This document shows, in pieces, positions 13,431 through 25,513 of a DNA stretch of 64,000 bases. Source of the stretch: Magnetococcales bacterium (lineage in GTDB: Bacteria; Pseudomonadota; Magnetococcia; Magnetococcales; Magnetaquicoccaceae). Where the stretch lies: NCBI GenBank assembly GCA_015231755.1, contig JADGAZ010000004.1, positions 1 through 64,000 of the forward strand, given 5' to 3'. Positions within the stretch are counted from its first letter, which is position 1. Each line of letters begins with the position of its first letter. A program made the translations under genes and the position numbers. The notes beneath the pieces are model-generated. The model was not told the DNA's origin. It saw nothing but the letters and a program-made list of their open reading frames with translations, and searched no databases.

Positions 13431-16400
13431 TTACTGAAAATAATAGTCCCCGCCCGGCTCATGTCCGGCGGACAACATGGCCCCATACTGGGGCGTCTGC
13501 GGAGAACGCTCCACCACGGAGCGGCGCACCTTCAAGAACAGATCGAACCCCGTCTGTCCCGATCCCATGCCCTTCAACTGCTCGATCAGACGGGAGGCGA
13601 AAACCGAATGGCCATCCCCGCCCCCATCCATCACCGGCTCCTCGCCTCCCGAAGACATCATCATCACCGACCGCTTGGCTTGGATCTGCTCCCGAGTCAA
13701 ACCGGCACTCTCGGAAGTGAAGGTGAATTCCCGGGTCAAGGTGCCGGAAAAACAGCTATCCGAAATCACCATGGTATGACGCGCCTTCACCTTGGCCAGA
13801 AAATCCGACAAATGGCGGGTGGAAATCCACTGGGAAGCACTTCCGGCACTGGCGTCGGACAACAACCAGTAGCCGTTCCCGGTCTCCGGCTGGAGATAAC
13901 CGTGTCCGGCATAATAGATCAACAGATCCTGATGGGGCTTGATCTTCGATCCCACCGCCCGGAAAGCCTCCACCACCCGATCGTGGGTGGCATCCGGCAT
14001 CACGATGGCCTGATACCCCCGGGCGCGCAACAAGGCCGCGATCACGTTGACATCATTCACCGGGGTATACAACGCGGGAATCGGCTCTTGATACCGATTG
14101 ACCCCGATCAACAACGCGATCCGCTCCCCGGTCAAGGGCGGAAACCAGGAGTCATCCCTGCCCTCCGCACTGTCCGTGCCGGTTTCAAAGGGATTTTCCC
14201 GGTCCCGTTGCGCCAACTCCGACACAGCCCCCGCATACAGTTCGGTGCGCGCCTCCTTCTGGATCTGAATGAAATCCCGCAACACCTGCATCATCCGCTC
14301 CCGGTCCGCGCCACCTTGCTCCAACAGATCGATCAGATCCGCCTGCTGCACCGGTTCCCCATGGGCGACCCGATCCAACACATCCCCCACCGCCTGGGTC
14401 AAAGAGTCGGGACTCTCCAGATACCCCTGAATCACCGCCCCCGGATCCGTCGGAACCCTCTCGCTCCCCTCCGGTACACGATCACCACTCCCGGATCCAC
14501 TCTCCCAGGGGGCAGGATCCAAAAACAACGGCCCCGGTTCCCCAACCACGACCGCCGGCATTCCCTCCGGACTCCCGCCCCCGGTCACCGCCATCGGCCC
14601 CTCCGCCACGACCACCGGCGGCGACCACTCCAAAGCCGTGGTCCCCTCCACCTGCTCGTTGACGTTGATCACCGGCACGATCCATCTGGCCTCCCGATAA
14701 GCCCCGGCCAGATCCGTGACCCGCACCGTGACCTCATAGGCGCTACGACGTTCGTAATCCAGCACACCGTCAAACAGCAGCAATTGATCCCGGTTCGGCC
14801 CGCCGATGGCAAACAGATGGGCATCCACCCCTCCGGCCACGGAAAAAACCAATCCGTCTCCGGCGTCCACATCCACCGCGCTCAACCGCCCGGCGATCAG
14901 ACCGTTCACGCTGGAGGTGTTCTCCCGGAGGATCTCGGGCAATAAGGTCAGGCTGACCGGCGCTTCGTTCTGATCGGTCACGACAATGGCGAAGGTCTCC
15001 TCGCCATGGGCGCCCTGGAGATCCGTGGCCCGCACCGTGACCGAATAGCGATCCCGGCTCTCGAAATCCAACCGTTCCCCCACCATGTACAATTGCCCGG
15101 AGTCCGCTCCTCCCAACCGGAATACGGCGCTGTCCGCCCCATCGACCAGGGAATAAACCACCCGATCCCCGGTATCCACCTCGATGGCAGACAACACGCC
15201 GATCAGAACACCCTGGGTGGTATCGGTATTTTCGACAATGGAGGCGGAACTCAACGTCAGATCACGGGGAGGATCGTTGCCGGGGGTGACCTGAATCCGC
15301 TTCACCCCCACCAAAGGATCCGCCACGCCGTCACTCACCACCACCGTGAGGGTGAAATCCCGATCGTGGTCCAGGGCCGGCATGAACGTCAATCCCGCCA
15401 GCATGGCGTTGACCTGATCCGGAGATCCCGCCAGCGTCCATGCGGTACCGTCACCGGTCAAATCCACGCCGGTCTGGGTACGAAACAACAACCGTCCCGC
15501 CGCGCCTTCGGAAAGGGTCAAGGTGGTGGTCACACGGGGGCTGTCGTCGGTGATGACGATGCTGTCCAACGCCAGAAACGGATCATCCTCCACCATGGAT
15601 TCGGCCGTATCCAGATGGGTGGCCGTGGGAGGGGTGTTCACGGCGATCATGGAGATGGGCTTGGCACCGATCACATTCGGGGTTACGCCATCCCCAACCG
15701 TGGTGATCAGGGTGAAATCCCGCTTCCACCCGGCAGACGGGGTAAAACGCACCGCCGCCAACAGGGCATTGACCGCGTCGATCCCTCCGGACGCCTGCCA
15801 GACCCCCCCCGCGAAAGTCGAAGCCACCCCATCGACAACCCCGGTGGAAAGGATTCCCGCACCCGGATCCGAAAGGGTCAGGGAGGCGATCACCGTGGCG
15901 CTGTCGGTACCGGTGATAACCATATCGGTCAAGTCGATCCCTGGACCATTCTCCAGCACACTTTCCGGGGCGGAAAGCTGCGAAACCAACAGGTTGTCAT
16001 GGACCGGAATGACCGTGACCGGTTTGACGCCGGTGATCTCCGGAGCCTGTCCATCGCTGACCGCAGTGGCGATGGTGAAATCCCGATCCCAGTTCTCCGC
16101 CGGGGTAAAGCGCACGCCGGTCAACAGCGCGTTGAGCGCTGCCAACTCGCCGGAACCGCGCCAATAGGTGCCATTGCTGCTCAACGTGGCCCCGGCATCC
16201 AGAAGGGTGCTCAAACTGCCTGCCGCCGGATTTTCCAGGGTCAAGGTGACGGTGGCCGATGCACTGTCCACATCCGTCACCACGATCGGAGTCAGATCAA
16301 AGGGGGAGGCATCCTCGATGAAGCGTTCCGGGGCGTTCAGGTTGGTGGCGGTGGGAGGGTCGTTGACAGCGGTCATCACCACATTCCTGAATCCGGTCAA

Positions 16401-19400
16401 CGTCGGGGCCTGACCGTCATCGATGGCGATGGCGATGACGAAATCCTGATCCCAGTCCCGGGACGGAATGAACGCCACCGCGGCCAACAGCGCGTTGACA
16501 TCGGCCACCGGCCCCAAGGCTGACCAGGTTCGTCCGTCAAAGGTGGAAGTCACCCCCTGGGAGGTGGAAGTGGTCAAAACGCCTGCCGCACCATCGGCCA
16601 GGGTCAAAGTCACCCCTACGCTGGCACTGTCCACGTCGGTAATCACCAGATCGATCAAATCATGACGCGAAACATCCTCCAGGATTCGTTCCTGACCGAA
16701 CAGATGGATGGCGGTGGGGGCATCGTTCACGGCGGTCACCCCCACCCGCTTGACCCCGGTCACCATCGGGGTCACCCCATCGGTCACTGTGGCGGTGATG
16801 GTCAGATCCTGATCCCAATCCGCAGCCGGAGAAAAGAAGGTTTCAGTCAACAAAGCGTTGACATCAGCCAACGCACCGGAAGCACGCCAAACCAACCCAT
16901 CAAAAGTGGCGCTCACTCCTCCCGACTGACCGGCAGACAACGTTCCCGCGCCACCCTGGCTCAAGCTCAGGGTGACAGTCACAGCGGCGGAGTCTGGATC
17001 CTGAATCACGATGGGCGCCAACAGAAACGCAGCACCATCTTCGATAAAACCCTCGGGAGTCGTCAACCCGCTGGCAACCGGCAAATCATCGGCCCCGTCT
17101 ATGGTGACCATCAGAGTGGCGGCAGTACTCAGGGAACCATCAGAAAGGGTATAAATAAAGGCCTCGGACAGGCTTTGACCGCTCTGCAAGGCGTTCACCG
17201 TGGGATTGGCATCGTTCACCACATAGACATAAGCGCCACTGCTGGAAATGGTCAGGGTGCCGTAACTGCCCGTCAGGGTGGTGGCCACGGCACTCAACGT
17301 GGCACTTTCCGGATCGGAATCATTGGTCAGCAGATTGCCCGTGGCGCTACTGCCGGCGCTGCTGCCGGTTTCAATGGCGGTTGCGGTATCGTTGCTGCCG
17401 AGAGGGGTATCATTGGCACCCTGGATGGTGACGGTGAGGGTGGCCGTGCTGGTCAAGGAGCCGTCGGACAGGGTATAGGTGAAGGCATCCGACACGCTTT
17501 GACTACTCTGCAAAGCGTTCACCGTGCTATTGGCATCATCCACCACATAGACATAAGCGCCACTGCTGGAAATGGTCAGAGTGCCATACGTGCCGGTCAA
17601 CGTCGTAGCCACGGCGCTTAATGTAGAAGATTCCGGATCGGAATCATTGGTCAGCAGATTACCCGTGGCATTGCTGCCGGCGCTGCTGCCGGTTTCGATG
17701 GCGGTTGCGGTGTCGTTGCTGCCGAGGGGGGTGTCGTTGGCACCCTGAATGGTGACGGTGAGGGTGGCGATATCGGTCAAGGAGCCATCGGACAGGGTAT
17801 AATTAAAAGAATCCGACACACTTTGACCGCTCTGCAAGGCGTTCACCATGCTGTTGGCATCATCCACCACATAGGTAAAACTCCCGTCCGCCAGCACGGT
17901 CAACGCCCCATAACTGCCGGAAAGGGCACTGCCAACCGTCCCGGCCACGCCGCCACCCGCCACACTGCCGGTACGAATGGCCGTCACCGTCTTGGTGCCT
18001 GTGGTCACATCGTTGGTCACCAGAGTACCCGACCCGTTGGCTCCGGCCGCACTCCCGGTTTCGGTGGCGCTGGCGGTGTCGTCGATGGCCAGCGGCGACA
18101 ATGACTCATAGGCGCCGATATCAATCAACGTATTGAAATAACGCGTATAACCGGTTCCCCTCTGATCGGTGGTGGAGCTGCTGCTCACCTGGGTCGAAGT
18201 CCAGCGGTCCAAAGCCGGACTGGTGGTGCCCAACGATAGGGTTTTGGTTGTCCCTCCATTGTTGGCCAGACTCCCCAGCACCGGATCCACACCGGTCACA
18301 TTGCTGGTGGTGGTGTTGATGGTGGCTCCGGTCGTGTTTTCGATCAGGCTGTAGTTGGCGGTGATCGTCCCTGACACATCGGCGGTGGTACCGGTATTGT
18401 CCGCAATCAAGGTATTGGTCGCCGACACCACCCCCCCAGCCGCAATCGAAAGTCCTCCCCCGGCACCGGTGGCGGTGTTGGCCGCCACGGTGGTATTGGT
18501 CAGGGTCAGGGTGCCGCCCCCCACCCGGATGCCCGCGCCAAGCGCTGAACTGTTGTCGGCGATGGTGCTGTTGTCGATGGAGACCGTCCCGGCGATGACG
18601 ATCAAGCCCCCTCCGGATCCGACACTGCTATTCCCGGAGATTGTACTGTCGGTGATGGTCAGGGTACCGCCCACCGCCTGATAAATGCCTCCACCGGTAC
18701 CACTCGCCGCCCCGGTGGGAGCCGAGTTGCCCGAAAAGGTACTGCGGGTGATGGTGACCACTCCCCCATCGTTGCGGATCCCGCCACCGAACGTGGCCGA
18801 ATTGCCGCTCACGGTGCTATCGATCACCTGCAACACGCCGTTGGCGTTCAGGTAAACCCCGCCGCCAAAGGTGCTGAACCCGGCGGTCGGCGTGATGGAA
18901 CTGTTGGAAATGGTGGAATAATCCAGCACCAGAGTCCCTTTCCCGATCAGCACCGCCCCACCTCCGGTGTTGGACGAGGCGACATAATCAAAATTATCGA
19001 TCGTCACGCCGTTGACCGTCAGGGTATTGGTGCTTGCGCTCATGTTGACATACAATCCGCGCAGGTTGGCCCCGCCACCACTCACGGTGATGTCGGCGAC
19101 CTGATCCCCATTGGTATCCCCCTGAATGACCAAATCATCCGTGACCGTGAGCATACTGGTCAGGGTGATGGTGCCGGTCACGGAAAATTGAATGGTATCC
19201 GTCACGCCCGACGTGGCATTGGCGTTGAGAATCGCCTGACGCAGACTCCCGGCCCCGGTATTGTTGAGATTGGTCACGGTATAGGTGGCCAGCAAACCAT
19301 CATACTCCGCCTGCGCCCTGACCGAAGGTGACAAAGCGCTCTCCACCACCCCTTCGGTCCACTCCAGATCCCAGTTGCCTCCCAGACGCGCCGCCCCGGT

Positions 19401-20033
19401 GGCATCCCGGGAGGCGGCCACATCCGCGCCGGTCAACTCCGCAATCCGCCGGACCAGCGTCTGTCCCTCCGCGCCAGCGGCCACGTCGCAGCCATAAAAC
19501 AAAATATCCCCCTCCCCGCTCAAACCCGAACCCCAGGCCCGAACCGTTTCGGCATACACCGACAGACTCTCCAGGGAGAGTTCCGCATTGCCCAAACGCA
19601 CCCTTCCATCGGAACCGTGGGTGATCAGATGCACCGCATCCACTTTTTCCAGACCCGCCAAGGTCTGGGCAATCCGGGCCACGCCATCCTCGTTGGACCC
19701 CAACACCACCACCGTGCGCTCCATGGCGGGATTTTCCAGCAACACCCGGTAATCCGCCACACCGGCATCCACAAACACCACCTCCCGCCGCCGATCCACC
19801 CCAGACGGCTCCACCGCAGGCACCAAAGCGTGCAACAGAGCCAATGTGGCGGACCCGGTGGTGGCCTCCCCATGAACCCCGCCATCCTCCCAGACCCGCA
19901 GCGCATCCCCCACGCCGGCGGCATCCAGCAACAACCGCTCCTCCAAAGCCAGCATCACGGGAAAAATCGGCGCGCCAGGCCATTTCGAAGACCGGAAGCC
20001 AAAATGGGAGTCACATTTTTGGTCAGTGTCCAT
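13431..20033 (-). CDS. Giant surface-type repeat protein with C-terminal caspase-like C14 domain
   Basis: The 2200-residue protein reads, in order: a LEERLLLDAAG motif at 30-40 (LEPR-XLL type, seen at the start of giant secreted repeat proteins); DUF4347 at about 84-248 (HLITHGSDGRVRLG, ILFYGCDVAAG); a Ser/Thr/Gly-rich right-handed beta-helix at 250-640; three VCBS/bacterial-cadherin-like repeats at 647-984; five Ig-like repeats of about 120 residues at 985-1588; two cadherin-like repeats at 1589-1793; an acidic Pro-rich linker; and a peptidase C14 domain at about 1970-2200. The caspase His (2044, YYAGHG) and Cys (2094, SDSCFSG) are present. No classical signal peptide is visible; type I secretion is typical for LEPR-XLL proteins, but no exporter is encoded here. 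Start ATG 20033 has GAGAG upstream. Confidence 0.9.
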   Translation of the reverse strand: MDTDQKCDSHFGFRSSKWPGAPIFPVMLALEERLLLDAAGVGDALRVWEDGGVHGEATTGSATLALLHALVPAVEPSGVDRRREVVFVDAGVADYRVLLENPAMERTVVVLGSNEDGVARIAQTLAGLEKVDAVHLITHGSDGRVRLGNAELSLESLSVYAETVRAWGSGLSGEGDILFYGCDVAAGAEGQTLVRRIAELTGADVAASRDATGAARLGGNWDLEWTEGVVESALSPSVRAQAEYDGLLATYTVTNLNNTGAGSLRQAILNANATSGVTDTIQFSVTGTITLTSMLTVTDDLVIQGDTNGDQVADITVSGGGANLRGLYVNMSASTNTLTVNGVTIDNFDYVASSNTGGGAVLIGKGTLVLDYSTISNSSITPTAGFSTFGGGVYLNANGVLQVIDSTVSGNSATFGGGIRNDGGVVTITRSTFSGNSAPTGAASGTGGGIYQAVGGTLTITDSTISGNSSVGSGGGLIVIAGTVSIDNSTIADNSSALGAGIRVGGGTLTLTNTTVAANTATGAGGGLSIAAGGVVSATNTLIADNTGTTADVSGTITANYSLIENTTGATINTTTSNVTGVDPVLGSLANNGGTTKTLSLGTTSPALDRWTSTQVSSSSTTDQRGTGYTRYFNTLIDIGAYESLSPLAIDDTASATETGSAAGANGSGTLVTNDVTTGTKTVTAIRTGSVAGGGVAGTVGSALSGSYGALTVLADGSFTYVVDDANSMVNALQSGQSVSDSFNYTLSDGSLTDIATLTVTIQGANDTPLGSNDTATAIETGSSAGSNATGNLLTNDSDPESSTLSAVATTLTGTYGTLTISSSGAYVYVVDDANSTVNALQSSQSVSDAFTYTLSDGSLTSTATLTVTIQGANDTPLGSNDTATAIETGSSAGSSATGNLLTNDSDPESATLSAVATTLTGSYGTLTISSSGAYVYVVNDANPTVNALQSGQSLSEAFIYTLSDGSLSTAATLMVTIDGADDLPVASGLTTPEGFIEDGAAFLLAPIVIQDPDSAAVTVTLSLSQGGAGTLSAGQSGGVSATFDGLVWRASGALADVNALLTETFFSPAADWDQDLTITATVTDGVTPMVTGVKRVGVTAVNDAPTAIHLFGQERILEDVSRHDLIDLVITDVDSASVGVTLTLADGAAGVLTTSTSQGVTSTFDGRTWSALGPVADVNALLAAVAFIPSRDWDQDFVIAIAIDDGQAPTLTGFRNVVMTAVNDPPTATNLNAPERFIEDASPFDLTPIVVTDVDSASATVTLTLENPAAGSLSTLLDAGATLSSNGTYWRGSGELAALNALLTGVRFTPAENWDRDFTIATAVSDGQAPEITGVKPVTVIPVHDNLLVSQLSAPESVLENGPGIDLTDMVITGTDSATVIASLTLSDPGAGILSTGVVDGVASTFAGGVWQASGGIDAVNALLAAVRFTPSAGWKRDFTLITTVGDGVTPNVIGAKPISMIAVNTPPTATHLDTAESMVEDDPFLALDSIVITDDSPRVTTTLTLSEGAAGRLLFRTQTGVDLTGDGTAWTLAGSPDQVNAMLAGLTFMPALDHDRDFTLTVVVSDGVADPLVGVKRIQVTPGNDPPRDLTLSSASIVENTDTTQGVLIGVLSAIEVDTGDRVVYSLVDGADSAVFRLGGADSGQLYMVGERLDFESRDRYSVTVRATDLQGAHGEETFAIVVTDQNEAPVSLTLLPEILRENTSSVNGLIAGRLSAVDVDAGDGLVFSVAGGVDAHLFAIGGPNRDQLLLFDGVLDYERRSAYEVTVRVTDLAGAYREARWIVPVINVNEQVEGTTALEWSPPVVVAEGPMAVTGGGSPEGMPAVVVGEPGPLFLDPAPWESGSGSGDRVPEGSERVPTDPGAVIQGYLESPDSLTQAVGDVLDRVAHGEPVQQADLIDLLEQGGADRERMMQVLRDFIQIQKEARTELYAGAVSELAQRDRENPFETGTDSAEGRDDSWFPPLTGERIALLIGVNRYQEPIPALYTPVNDVNVIAALLRARGYQAIVMPDATHDRVVEAFRAVGSKIKPHQDLLIYYAGHGYLQPETGNGYWLLSDASAGSASQWISTRHLSDFLAKVKARHTMVISDSCFSGTLTREFTFTSESAGLTREQIQAKRSVMMMSSGGEEPVMDGGGDGHSVFASRLIEQLKGMGSGQTGFDLFLKVRRSVVERSPQTPQYGAMLSAGHEPGGDYYFQ
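17097..17732 (-). repeat. Two near-identical VCBS-type repeat units in tandem
   Basis: Two consecutive 318-base units (17415-17732 and 17097-17414) encode 106-residue repeats that differ at only about 15-20 positions, both starting PLGSNDTATAIETGSSAGS. DNA similarity is also high across the units. The neighbouring units on both sides are much more diverged, so this pair probably arose by recent duplication. Confidence 0.85.
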
Positions 20034-20211: not shown

Positions 20212-20907
20212 ATGAAACGCATCGCTTTCTGGAGCCGACTGGGGATGGTGATGGGCATATTGGCCAGCGGATCGCTGCTGGCCAGTGAACTCGTGGTGTA
20301 CAAGGCCGAAGGGATCCAACTGACCCCTGGCCAGACCATCAACACCACGCAACCCCTGACCCTGACCGCCGGACAGCGGGTGACTTTACTCTCTTCCAAC
20401 GGGACCGCCATCAATCTGGAAGGTCCTTTTCAAGGTCTGCCTATATCCAAGACTCAGGCCAGTACGGATACCGGAGTGGTCAACACCTTGAAAATGCTCG
20501 TATCCGCCCCAAAGACCCGTTCGGGGGGTCTGGGGACCACCCGGGCCATTCCTCAAATTCTGGATGTGACCCGCAGTGGTCATTACTGCCTGAACGAGGG
20601 GCAACCGTTGGTGTTCTGGCGTCCATCCAGTCAGGAGAATGCCCTCATCACCGTGCGACTGGGCCAACAACAATGGAAAGCCCACTCCCAATGGCCGGCG
20701 GGCACCAACCAGCTCACACCGCCCCCCACCATGCCCATAAGCGATGGGGCGGTCTATCGACTGGAGTTGGATGGTCAACCCAGCACGACCACGCTGCATC
20801 TGATTCCGTCCAACCTGACCACCCCCAAGGAGCGAACCGCCTGGATGACCGCCAAGGGATGCGATGCCCAATTGGCCTCCCTGAACCACCTCCAGGCCAC
20901 GCAATGA
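20212..20907 (+). CDS. Exported protein of unknown function behind a sigma-54 promoter
   Basis: The ATG at 20212 follows AAGGAGA at ideal spacing, giving 231 residues. Residues 1-25 form a signal peptide (MKRIAFWSRLGMVMGILASG, cleavage near LLAS). The mature part contains LTPGQTINTTQPLTLTAGQRVTLL, beta-rich and somewhat FecR-like, and a second half with GHYCLNEGQPLVFWRP and RLELDG. No family is recognised. It is transcribed divergently from the giant caspase-tailed protein and followed by a response-regulator gene. A periplasmic or surface role beside the giant protein is a guess from position. Confidence 0.8.
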   Translation: MKRIAFWSRLGMVMGILASGSLLASELVVYKAEGIQLTPGQTINTTQPLTLTAGQRVTLLSSNGTAINLEGPFQGLPISKTQASTDTGVVNTLKMLVSAPKTRSGGLGTTRAIPQILDVTRSGHYCLNEGQPLVFWRPSSQENALITVRLGQQQWKAHSQWPAGTNQLTPPPTMPISDGAVYRLELDGQPSTTTLHLIPSNLTTPKERTAWMTAKGCDAQLASLNHLQATQ

Positions 20908-21004
20908 CATTTCCATTCGGCCCGTGGTGTTGTATCCTGTGATCTGAATCCAAAAAGATGCAGCACCACTTGGGCCAAGGTCTATCGCGGGGGTGAAGGG
21001 CAAC

Positions 21005-21808
21005 ATGAAAATTCTGATCGTCGATGATGATCCCGGACAACGGGAGAAACTGACCACCATTCTCTCCCCCCTGGGTTCCTGCGACCAGGCCGGAGACGGC
21101 GAAGCGGCACTGGCCCTCTTCGAGGCGGCACTGGAGGAGAAAGCCCCCTACCATGTGGTGTGCATGGATATCGAAATGCCTCGCCTGGATGGCCATCAAG
21201 CCCTTTACGCCATCCGCGACATGGAAAAAAACTGGGCGGTTCCGGGCAAAGGCCAGACCATCGCCATCATGATCACCGCCCGCAACACCGCCGACGACAT
21301 TCTGGACGCCTTCCACGGCACCTGTCAGGGATACGTCAACAAGCCGGTGGATGGGGAATACCTGATCCACCGCATCCGGGAACACCTGCCCAAACGGCTG
21401 GAAGCCACCTGGGACAACATCCCCCGACGGGTTCCCCCGGGTCACAGCACCTCCCGCAAGCTGGTGCCCGAGGATCCGGAAAAACTGGCTCCGCAAATGA
21501 TCAATCTGGTCAAACGCTTCGCGAAGAAATGGCCCGACCGTCCCATCGTGGCCACCCCCATCCTGGAAGAAAAAAAACAGCTTGCCAACGACTTCACCCG
21601 TCAACTGGACCTGGCCTTGAACCAGGCCATCGCGGAAATCGGTCTGGACGAGGCCGGCGGGGAGAGCTTGAGGTTAAACGGGGTGTATGATTTCGTCTCT
21701 GGCGGGGTGGTGCTGAAGCTGACCCTTCTCGAAGGACAAAACCGCCTGCTCGATGGGGTGCGGGTGCCCTTGCGGGCGCTGTGGGTCAAGGTGCCCGCGG
21801 GGGGCTGA
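21005..21808 (+). CDS. Response regulator with unrecognised C-terminal domain
   Basis: Residues 1-130 form a CheY-like receiver: acidic DDD at 7-9, phosphoacceptor Asp55 in VCMDIEMP, TA in MITARN, and Lys in YVNKPVD. The remaining 135 residues (from about KLVPEDPEKLAPQMINLVKRFAKKWPD, with DFTRQLDLALNQAI and NGVYDFVSGGVVLKL) match no output domain I know; there is no DNA-binding, GGDEF or EAL motif. Start ATG 21005 has GAAGGG four bases before; an upstream GTG at 20993 would bury it. A partner could be the CHASE2 hybrid kinase convergent at 22.6-25.5 kb. Confidence 0.85.
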   Translation: MKILIVDDDPGQREKLTTILSPLGSCDQAGDGEAALALFEAALEEKAPYHVVCMDIEMPRLDGHQALYAIRDMEKNWAVPGKGQTIAIMITARNTADDILDAFHGTCQGYVNKPVDGEYLIHRIREHLPKRLEATWDNIPRRVPPGHSTSRKLVPEDPEKLAPQMINLVKRFAKKWPDRPIVATPILEEKKQLANDFTRQLDLALNQAIAEIGLDEAGGESLRLNGVYDFVSGGVVLKLTLLEGQNRLLDGVRVPLRALWVKVPAGG

Positions 21809-22591: not shown

Positions 22592-25513
22592 TCACACCTC
22601 CAGGCCCAGTTGCCGGGCAATCCCCAACACCGTATCCCGCCCGCTGTCGAAATCGAACTCCTCCAACTGCTCCGCCAAGGCACGGGTCTCTTCGACCGCC
22701 ACCAGACCATCCGCCGCCGCGATCAAGGAAGGCAACACCCCACGGGCCGCCTCCAGATCCCCATCATCGATGGCGGCCAACATCCGCTCCACCACCACGC
22801 CGCTCTCCTCCCGCGCCAAACGACGACAAGACTCCACCACCACCCCCATGGCCGTCTCCACCGCGGCCACCAGCGGCAATCCCTCCTCCCCGTTGCGCAA
22901 GGCGGTATCCAACACCTTGGCCGCCTCGGCCAACTCCACAGCCGCCAGATTGCCCGCTCCCCCTTTCAAGGCGTGGGCGATCCCCTTGGCCGTGGCCGCG
23001 TCCCCCCCGGTCAACGCCTCCCGGATGCGGGCACCGTCGTCGGCCCTGGTCATGGCAAAACGGATCAAGGCGCGACGATACGCCTCCCAATCCCCCCAGG
23101 CCTCCAAAGCCGCCCCCACATCCACCCCGGCCACCTCCGGCAAGACCACAGGAGTCTCGGGAACGCTCTTTGCCATGATGTCTACCGTCTGCGCTTCCCC
23201 CTGGGACTCCCCGGGCAAAGGCTCCCCCGCCCCCTCGGGCACCACACGGGCGATCACCGCGAACAAGGCGTTAAAATCGATGGGCTTGGTCACATACTCG
23301 TCCATGCCCGACTCCAGACACCGCTCCCGATCTCCCTTCATGGCATTGGCGGTCATGGCCACGATGGGCACCCGCCCGCCATTGCTGGCCTTTTCCCGGG
23401 CCCGGATCCCCATGGCCGCGTCAAAACCGTTCAAACGGGGCATCTGCACATCCATCAACACCAGATCGAAACGGCCCGGCGCGAACATCTCCACCGCCTC
23501 GGCCCCATCCCGGGCCACCGTCACCCGATGCCCCGGACGGGTCAAGCGGATCATCACCAGTTCGATGTTGGCCTCCACATCCTCCGCCAACAAAATCGAC
23601 AACGAACGCCTGGAACCCGACGAGGTGGTCGCCAGACCCATGGGGGCCAAACGGCATTCCGTCACCCCGCGGGCTTCGGGCAGACGAATCCGGAAGTGAA
23701 ACACACTCCCCTTGCCCACTTCGCTGGTTACCCAGATGCGCCCATCCATGCGTTCGACGATCTTTTGACAAATGGTCAATCCCAGACCGGTCCCGCCGTG
23801 ACTGCGGGTGGTGGAGCCATCCGCCTGGGTGAAACTCTCGAAAATGGCATCCAACCGGTTGGCCGGAATGCCGATGCCGGTATCCACCACGGTGAAATAC
23901 AAAAAATCCTCATCCCGCCCATCCCGGCTCACCCCCACGGTCACGCTGCCATGCTCGGTAAACTTGATGGCATTGCCCGCCAAATTGACGATCACCTGTC
24001 GCAGCCGGGCCGGATCCCCGGTGAAACAAGGCCCCAACGCCTCATCCACCGCCAACTCCAGGGAGAGTCCCTTCATGCGGGCCACGGCGATCAGGGTCTC
24101 CCGGGCGTCGGAAAGCATCTGGCGCAGATCGAACACCACCTGCTCCAGGGTCATCTTGCCGGCTTCCATCTTGGAGAAATCCAGGATATCGTTCAACAAG
24201 CCCAGCAACGCCTTGGCCGAGCGCATCACCGTGGCGAGCAATTTCTGCTGTTCTTCGGACAAAGGGGTTTCCAGCAGCAGTTCGGTCATACCGATGACGG
24301 CATTCATGGGGGTGCGGATTTCGTGGCTCATGTTGGCCAGAAATTCCGACTTCATGCGGGTTTCCTCCTGGGCGCGCTGCTTGCGTCGCCGCTCCTCCCC
24401 CCCCACCTGGAGGGTGGTGAGCAGAAATCCCAGCCAGAACGCCAAAGTCGGCGTCACCAGAGGCAACAGGATGCCCAGATGGGCAAAAAACAAAAATCCC
24501 CCTCCCCAGCAGACAATGGTGCCCGCCAAGGCCAATCCCGCGTTCAGGATGAACGCGGTCTCCAATCGCGCCAACAGAATGCCGGAAGTGGTCGCCACAG
24601 CCAGAAGAATCCACCGTGCCAGGGGGGCTGCCTCGGGAAAACGTCGTCCGTCCAAAATCTGGGCCAAGGCATGGGCCAGAATCACCACCCCCGCCATGTT
24701 GCCCCCCTCATCCCCCCGGGACTGGGCCACCAGACTCAATGGGGTGCGGTGACGATCGCTCAAGGGCAGATCCCCACCGATCAACACGATGCGATTTTCC
24801 AGCCACGCATCCGGCAACACCGCGGCGATGTGGGCCGGAAAGGTCACGAACGGGGATTCTCCGGGTTTGGGAGCGCCACGCCAGGCGATGCGCGTGGTCT
24901 CGGTGGGGGGCGCAACCCCCAGACGCGCCGCCAAAGCCCCCACCGCCCCATGCATGCGATGGCCATCCGGCAGCGTCCGACCCGGATAAAGCCAACGCAC
25001 ACTGCCATCGTGGGCATCCTTGATCATGTCCGACAAACCCCGCATCTCCACGGGAAGAAAGTCGTCCAGAAAGGTCATTTGCGCCGCGCTCAAGGTGTGA
25101 CCGAAACGGTCCAGACCGTAACTGGCCACCAGCGGAATCCGCATGGCCCGCAACCGCTCCTTGAGCAACGCATCCTTGGCCGGCTCGGTGGCCTGGTCCA
25201 GCAGCACATCCAGAAACACCGCCCGGGCCTTTTTTTTCTCCAGGGTTTCCAGCAGGGTGGTCAGAAAGGCCCGATCAATGGGGGAACGATACGGAAACAT
25301 GCGCAAGGTCTCTTCCGTGATGGCCAGGACCACGATATCCGGATGCACCGGTTCCGGAGGAGAGAGGGCGGCGATGCGGAAATCATCCACCCAGTTGTCC
25401 ATGATGCGGAAAAAAGGCAGATATTCCATCACCACCACCGCCAGGGCCATGGAAATGAACGCCACAGCCCCCAGACGCATCAGTGGACGACTCCAGATCG
25501 GCGCCCCCCTCAT
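22592..25513 (-). CDS. CHASE2-domain hybrid histidine kinase with REC and Hpt
   Basis: In order: N-terminal membrane helix (12-32), periplasmic CHASE2 domain (about 35-295, with [10 protein letters not shown] and [16 protein letters not shown]-like motifs), a block of helices (300-370), HisKA with His397 in [10 protein letters not shown], HATPase with Asn514 in [12 protein letters not shown] and DTGIGIP and GGTGLGL boxes, receiver with Asp688 in [13 protein letters not shown], and Hpt with His847 in [11 protein letters not shown]. All phosphorelay residues are intact. CHASE2 senses an unknown extracellular cue. An output regulator is not fused; the receiver protein at 21005 is a nearby candidate. 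The stop codon overlaps the ribosome site of the YdcF-type gene. Confidence 0.95.

What the first reader, a model, noticed from the sequence alone, without database searches (positions are those of the whole stretch)
13431..20033. Giant DUF4347/VCBS/cadherin-type protein carrying an intact caspase-like C14 domain at its C-terminus
The sequence shows one continuous 2200-codon frame joining a LEPR-XLL-like start, DUF4347, a beta-helix, three VCBS-type, five Ig-like and two cadherin-like repeats to a C14 domain with His2044 and Cys2094 both in canonical motifs. Caspase homologues are usually cytosolic effectors or small secreted metacaspases; placing one at the end of an adhesin-like stalk suggests a surface or contact-dependent protease, a self-processing tail, or an effector released on cleavage. 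The C-terminal position also displaces the usual type I secretion signal, so the export route is open.
Basis: partly seen in the sequence, partly recalled or inferred. Interest (0 to 1): 0.78.

Follow-up and report, generated by a model that had tools for sequence, protein, structure and literature searches.

The report
Giant exported protein with caspase-like tail
A magnetotactic bacterium makes a very long, apparently exported surface-type protein whose last 220 residues are an intact caspase-like protease, and because the same head-and-tail design recurs in 16 related genomes it looks like a real, conserved machine part rather than an assembly accident.

Summary
A single 2200-codon gene on the MINUS strand (13431-20033) of a Magnetococcales genome joins an LEPR-XLL-like start, DUF4347, a beta-helix region, VCBS, Ig-like and cadherin repeats to a Peptidase_C14 domain (E 2.5e-21; H2044, C2094). 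Fourteen complete single-frame copies of this design occur in 12 Magnetococcales genomes, with incomplete copies in four more. The catalytic His and Cys, and acidic residues matching the MALT1 arginine pocket, are invariant, and selection is purifying. So it is neither an assembly join nor a dead domain.

DUF4347 genes, including most C14-tailed ones, sit by a four-gene set (TolC-like OEP, HlyD, GAF-type HlyD, M50-HlyD), a SecA-less relative of a published T1SS-like locus. Complete C14-less DUF4347 giants also lack a C-terminal RTX array, so C14 displaces no usual signal. The nearest C14 relatives outside the group tail two-partner-secretion exoproteins (Azospirillum and others) or carry a signal peptide.

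Best reading: an exported paracaspase-like, arginine/lysine-specific protease module. The substrate (own stalk or others) is unknown. DUF4347 itself may be caspase-fold (weak evidence). Activity and export are inferred, not shown.

The parts
13431..20033 (-). giant gene, 2200 codons: LEPR-like start, DUF4347, beta-helix/anchor Q, VCBS, Ig-like, cadherin, helical linker, Peptidase_C14
19920..19946 (-). LEPR-XLL-like motif LEERLLLDA (residues 30-38), candidate N-terminal export motif
   Evidence: same place in all 14 complete relatives as LE[PDSE]R; role inferred
19290..19781 (-). DUF4347 (residues 85-248) with invariant H139-G and G-C182
   Evidence: weak caspase/legumain fold match
18102..19256 (-). 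beta-helix-like region ending in choice-of-anchor Q domain (about residues 260-644)
   Evidence: NCBIfam NF041518 at 583-644; Chlam_PMP repeat hits in relatives
17094..18098 (-). three VCBS/Cadherin_4-type repeats (about residues 646-980)
15264..17066 (-). five Ig-like repeats of about 115 aa (about residues 990-1590)
   Evidence: read from the translation
14634..15251 (-). two cadherin domains (about residues 1595-1800)
14199..14396 (-). conserved helical linker before C14 (about residues 1880-1945), a version of which precedes exported C14 domains elsewhere
13473..14123 (-). Peptidase_C14 caspase-like domain (residues 1971-2187); H2044 at 13902-13904, C2094 at 13752-13754; acidic S1 candidates D1994, D2092, E2131/E2132
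20212..20907 (+). divergent partner gene (231 aa from ATG at 20212, N-terminal signal-peptide-like stretch, no known domain), linked to C14-tailed DUF4347 genes or their export genes in Magnetococcales

Best explanation
The gene encodes an exported, surface-type protease. Shown: the architecture, its conservation in 16 genomes, the intact catalytic and S1-type acidic residues, purifying selection, and genetic linkage of DUF4347 genes to an ABC-less T1SS-like locus. Inferred: (1) the N-terminal LEPR/DUF4347 part sends the protein through an M50-HlyD / GAF-HlyD / HlyD / TolC-like apparatus; in this genome parts of it are on contigs C7 and C27, with a TolC-like gene beside the other DUF4347 gene on C21; (2) the beta-helix and VCBS/Ig/cadherin stalk stands off the cell or binds matrix, metal ions or neighbours; (3) the C-terminal helical segment plus C14 domain is a paracaspase/metacaspase-like cysteine endopeptidase cutting after Arg or Lys, acting outside the cytoplasm on surface or matrix proteins. 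It belongs to a sub-clade of C14 domains that is used repeatedly as an exported module: on DUF4347 giants, on TpsA exoproteins and as a small protein with a signal peptide.
For: C14 hit well above cut-off; PDB sequence and fold matches led by the paracaspase MALT1, E 6e-6 by phmmer, 4.6e-8 by profile, 6.9e-9 by Foldseek. His/Cys invariant in all tails; residues at the MALT1 Asp365, Asp462 and Glu500 positions, which PMC4357240 names as the arginine S1 pocket, are present in all DUF4347 tails. Fourteen complete single-frame copies in 12 genomes. dN/dS against the nearest relative 0.095 for linker+C14, 0.28 for DUF4347. Head and tail distances agree, Mantel r 0.85, 0 of 5000 permutations. DUF4347 genes lie within 25 kb of the strong M50-HlyD class in 38 of 137 cases against about 5 by chance, including 9 of 15 C14-tailed ones; gene order giant-OEP-HlyD-GAF/HlyD-M50/HlyD. 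Nearest outside C14 relatives: TPS exoproteins L034, L054 (TpsB gene next door), Azospirillum H1-H4, and a protein with a signal-peptide-like start, L055; they and the DUF4347 tails are split with 100/100 support from eight other Magnetococcales C14 domains.
Against: No export, localisation or protease activity is shown by any tool. No signal peptide is evident in the giant. In the window the export genes are not adjacent. The AF2 model is only moderate (mean pLDDT 65.6, pTM 0.69) and poor past residue 216 of the query, so the p10 half rests on sequence. P1 specificity is inferred from three acidic positions. The gene is patchy, found in 16 of 48 genomes of the order, so its role is dispensable for many. 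The chance expectation for linkage is a simple estimate for 4-Mb genomes that ignores contig breaks. The energy source of the export locus is unknown. The tree has long branches, and the DUF4347 tails as a group of their own are not supported (28/0).
Confidence: 0.6

Rival explanations
1. Self-processing tail: after export the C14 domain mainly cuts its own polypeptide, in the linker or stalk, to release the stalk or shed itself, so it is a maturation domain rather than a protease for other targets.
For: It is always C-terminal and preceded by a conserved helical linker with a Q-K-x-x-R/K-T-like motif in most copies; metacaspases and gingipains are listed as activated by proteolysis and/or calcium (PMC4357240).
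Against: The R/K is replaced by Y in L024 and N in L026, so no invariant cut site is seen; MALT1, the nearest solved relative, is listed as activated by dimerization rather than proteolysis (PMC4357240).
Confidence: 0.22
2. Cytosolic effector: the giant is not exported, and the C14 domain acts inside the cell as other prokaryotic caspase homologues may, for example in stress or cell death.
For: No signal peptide; no export genes adjacent in the window; many Magnetococcales C14 proteins are smaller proteins of unknown location.
Against: VCBS, cadherin and beta-helix domains are typical of exported proteins; linkage of DUF4347 to the OEP/HlyD/M50 locus; nearest C14 relatives are TPS exoproteins.
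Confidence: 0.1
3. Structural or dead domain: the caspase fold is kept as a binding or anchoring module without catalysis.
For: Bacterial pseudo-orthocaspases exist (PMC6426788, abstract listed).
Against: His and Cys, and the acidic pocket positions, are invariant in every copy, and the tail is better conserved than the head, mean identity 58% against 43% for DUF4347.
Confidence: 0.08

Closest known systems
Prokaryotic caspase homologues / orthocaspases / bacterial metacaspases (Peptidase_C14; PMC3501461)
   Same: C14 domain with His-Cys dyad and multi-domain architectures
   Different: The section of the 2012 survey read here lists WD40, TPR, Sel1, FGE-sulfatase, NACHT and others; a word search of that paper for cadherin, adhesin and secreted found nothing. 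Here C14 ends an adhesin-like giant.
MALT1 paracaspase (PDB 3V4O, 7A41)
   Same: best sequence and fold match; acidic residues at the same S1 positions; MALT1 also carries Ig-type domains
   Different: Bacterial, C-terminal on a stalk, no death domain; only about 25% identity over about 130 residues
Two-partner-secretion exoproteins with a C14 tail, e.g. WP_247894518.1 of Azospirillum sp. B510 plasmid pAB510d
   Same: exported stalk ending in the same C14 sub-clade with a related helical segment
   Different: TPS export domain and, in L054, an adjacent TpsB, instead of LEPR/DUF4347
T1SS-like locus with secondary SecA_DEAD (Kamneva et al. 2015, PMC4452313)
   Same: M50-HlyD, GAF-type HlyD and HlyD/biotin_lipoyl proteins, sometimes OEP, no ABC transporter
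   Different: No secondary SecA in the window genome; where secondary SecA genes occur in relatives they sit beside a more diverged M50-HlyD class. A word search of the paper for DUF4347 and C14 found nothing.
BapA/LapF-type large adhesins
   Same: VCBS/Ig repeat stalk; partial NCBIfam NF045619 match
   Different: Below that model's cut-off (81.9 against 180 bits); no RTX/T1SS C-terminus

Membership tests
Peptidase_C14 (clan CD, caspase-like) | Pfam C14 match above gathering score | tested here: met
   76.8 bits against 21.4
Peptidase_C14 (clan CD, caspase-like) | catalytic His and Cys in motif | tested here: met
   H2044, C2094; invariant in relatives
Peptidase_C14 (clan CD, caspase-like) | caspase fold | tested here: met
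   Foldseek best match MALT1, E 6.9e-9, 188 matches at E<=0.001; p10 half poorly modelled
C14B, Arg/Lys specificity (paracaspase/metacaspase) | acidic S1 pocket residues | tested here: met
   D1994, D2092, E2131/2132 at the MALT1 D365/D462/E500 positions by alignment and motif, not by a bound structure
C14B, Arg/Lys specificity (paracaspase/metacaspase) | measured cleavage after Arg or Lys | not testable with these tools
   needs enzyme assay
LEPR-XLL / DUF4347 giant proteins | DUF4347 near the N-terminus | tested here: met
   E 2.6e-53
LEPR-XLL / DUF4347 giant proteins | LEPR-XLL N-terminal motif | tested here: inconclusive
   LEERLLLDA aligns with LEPR in relatives, but no curated model was hit
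RTX adhesin / canonical type I secretion substrate | C-terminal RTX repeats and ABC-type T1SS | tested here: not met
   no RTX family hit in the giant; C-terminus is C14; no ABC gene identified in the linked locus
Kamneva SecA_DEAD T1SS-like locus | M50-HlyD, GAF-HlyD, HlyD, OEP gene set | tested here: met
   in relatives; in the window genome the HlyD-type genes are in trans. The GAF domain itself was not hit by Pfam in the two copies scanned
Kamneva SecA_DEAD T1SS-like locus | secondary SecA_DEAD gene in the locus | tested here: not met
   only one SecA_DEAD in the window genome, on C1
Two-partner secretion | TPS domain | tested here: not met
   absent in the window protein, present in L034, L054, L070
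DUF4347 as a clan CD peptidase | caspase-type fold with HG and C after successive strands | tested here: inconclusive
   H139-G and G-C182 invariant in 14 copies; Foldseek top hits are caspases and legumain but E only 4e-4; profile comparison with C14 gave 4% probability

The most novel reading that the evidence does not exclude
Bacteria have an exported arginine-specific paracaspase module that has been fitted to at least two unrelated export chassis. In the DUF4347 version the same polypeptide carries caspase-fold protease domains at both ends: an N-terminal DUF4347 peptidase that may process the export signal, and a C-terminal C14 effector. Export would go through an ABC-less, SecA-less M50-HlyD-TolC machine.
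Probability: 0.2. Interest if true: 0.82.

Novelty: new variant of a known kind. Interest (0 to 1): 0.6.

Why it matters
Bacterial caspase homologues are usually discussed in connection with stress and programmed cell death. A conserved sub-clade that tails exported giants points to an extracellular role, and it gives a testable substrate class for a kind of export locus whose biological role was called completely unknown in 2015 (PMC4452313). A related TpsA protein in Azospirillum sp. B510, a named strain with a complete plasmid record, gives a place to test it.

Tried and rejected
Assembly fusion of two genes: rejected by 14 single-frame copies in 12 genomes. Degraded domain: rejected by invariant residues and dN/dS. 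Canonical T1SS with RTX signal: no RTX hit, and complete sister DUF4347 giants lack RTX arrays too; one truncated frame, L063, has 11 GGxGxD motifs, so this is not universal. Polymorphic-toxin logic (variable tip): rejected, since the tip is the best conserved part. Magnetosome function: in three f6-family loci the giant lies next to mamE- and mamK-like genes, but the window genome has its magnetochrome genes on other contigs, so no link is claimed. Direct sequence homology of DUF4347 with C14: hhalign 4% probability, not supported. Paper searches for DUF4347, LEPR-XLL or caspase with adhesin or two-partner-secretion terms gave nothing on this design, so absence from the literature is only as good as that open-access library. 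No library of predicted structures of cellular proteins was on hand for the fold search.
Full report
Observation. The gene is on the minus strand, 13431-20033, 2200 codons. Domains: DUF4347 85-248, VCBS/Cadherin_4 repeats, two cadherin stretches, Peptidase_C14 1971-2187; choice-of-anchor Q 583-644 and three VCBS repeats.

It is real. The eight loci found by a scan of public genomes are all Magnetococcales. Across the order, cross-reading the C14 and DUF4347 searches shows single frames with both domains. After fetching them there are 14 complete LEPR-DUF4347-stalk-C14 frames of 1093-2386 aa in 12 genomes, three more cut by a contig end, and one broken into two frames, L007/L033. With the linker+C14 profile, 16 of the order's 48 genomes carry the full-length tail. 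Catalytic residues never vary. Window against L002: dN/dS 0.28 in DUF4347, 0.083 in the beta-helix part, 0.095 in linker+C14. Head and tail distances correlate, r 0.85, none of 5000 permutations as high. The architecture therefore seems to have been inherited as a whole, while the stalk is remodelled.

Fold and chemistry. AF2 on nine sequences gave mean pLDDT 65.6, good through the core up to about residue 210 of the query and poor after. Foldseek's first 34 matches are MALT1, then a Geobacter protein (GSU0716), metacaspases and caspases. Sequence search says the same. PMC4357240 names Asp365, Asp462 and Glu500 as the MALT1 P1-arginine determinants. By my reading D1994 aligns with Asp365 and D2092, two before the catalytic Cys, with Asp462; E2131 or E2132 lies in the matching loop. 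All are conserved in the DUF4347 tails. I infer Arg/Lys specificity.

The other end. DUF4347 also has an invariant HG and GC pair across 14 copies, each following a predicted strand. The model's best PDB matches are caspases and legumain, at only E 4e-4; the profile comparison with C14 is negative. A PDB chain labelled DUF4347, 9QPE chain G, has the same HG and GC in a weak alignment, E 0.048. A caspase fold at both ends is possible but unproven.

Export. Around the C14-tailed giants of family f6 the order is giant, OEP (with AMIN in the copy scanned), HlyD adaptor, HlyD with a long N-terminal part like the GAF-HlyD protein of the published locus, M50-HlyD; the adaptor and M50 genes are also near the giants of family f14. 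The strong class of M50-HlyD occurs in 42 of 48 genomes and DUF4347 in 44; they co-occur in 41 (Fisher p 0.004). Of 137 DUF4347 genes 38 have M50-HlyD within 25 kb, about 5 expected; many contigs are short, so 38 is probably a lower bound. In the window genome M50-HlyD genes are on C7 and C27, the latter with HlyD partners, and an OEP gene lies beside the second DUF4347 gene on C21. Kamneva et al. 2015 (PMC4452313) described a relative of this locus with a secondary SecA. In the seven Magnetococcales genomes tested the secondary SecA genes sit about 2 kb from a more diverged M50-HlyD class, and the window genome has none. Complete DUF4347 giants without C14 end in varied sequence with no RTX array.

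Relatives of the tail. Beyond the order, the best matches to linker+C14 are a small protein with a signal-peptide-like start (L055) and a 2152-aa TPS exoprotein with a TpsB gene upstream (L054). In the same genus as the window one genome has a TPS-GLUG-C14 protein, L034. On plasmids the four best hits are Azospirillum proteins annotated as filamentous haemagglutinin N-terminal; the one examined is TPS at 53-314 and C14 at 1507-1719. A helical stretch with an R-T-x-x-[FY] core precedes C14 in these too, sometimes with an inserted domain between. In a tree these and the DUF4347 tails are split from eight other Magnetococcales C14 domains with 100/100 support; long branches advise caution.

Partner. 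A gene of about 231 aa from ATG at 20212 lies divergently next to the giant. Relatives of it are next to the giant, or at the far end of the export set, in most loci. No family model matches. It looks periplasmic or exported by its N-terminus, judged by eye.

Verdict. An exported giant with a functional-looking paracaspase-like tail; new in combination, built from known parts. What it cuts is the open question.

Noticed in passing
L025:10726-15018, L027:9571-14069, L028:1462-4622: In three f6-family genomes the DUF4347-C14 gene lies next to and divergent from a MamE-like gene (trypsin, PDZ and magnetochrome domains in L027) followed by a MamK-like actin gene, a cation-efflux gene (L027) and a LemA-type gene (L025), i.e. 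at the edge of a magnetosome gene cluster.
   Followed up: partly
window 20212-20907 +: A conserved gene with a signal-peptide-like start and no known domain, linked to C14-tailed DUF4347 genes or their export genes across Magnetococcales; candidate new family.
   Followed up: partly
L034:9450-16118 -: TPS + GLUG repeats + C14 tail in the same genus as the window; a second exported chassis for the same protease clade.
   Followed up: yes
order-wide, search results: Two classes of M50-HlyD genes: one beside DUF4347 giants without SecA, and a diverged one beside secondary SecA_DEAD genes, some on contigs that also carry very long DUF4347 genes.
   Followed up: partly
PDB 9QPE chain G: A solved chain named DUF4347 domain-containing protein, with the HG and GC motifs kept in a weak alignment; the entry's context was not available here.
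   Followed up: no
L007 4228-10768 / L033 3972-10512: A copy of the giant split into two overlapping frames: pseudogene or assembly frameshift, left as found.
   Followed up: no
window 22592-25513 - and 20948-21808 +: CHASE2 histidine kinase with receiver and Hpt, and a response regulator, near the giant; the regulator is also near it in L002, L004 and L005.
   Followed up: no
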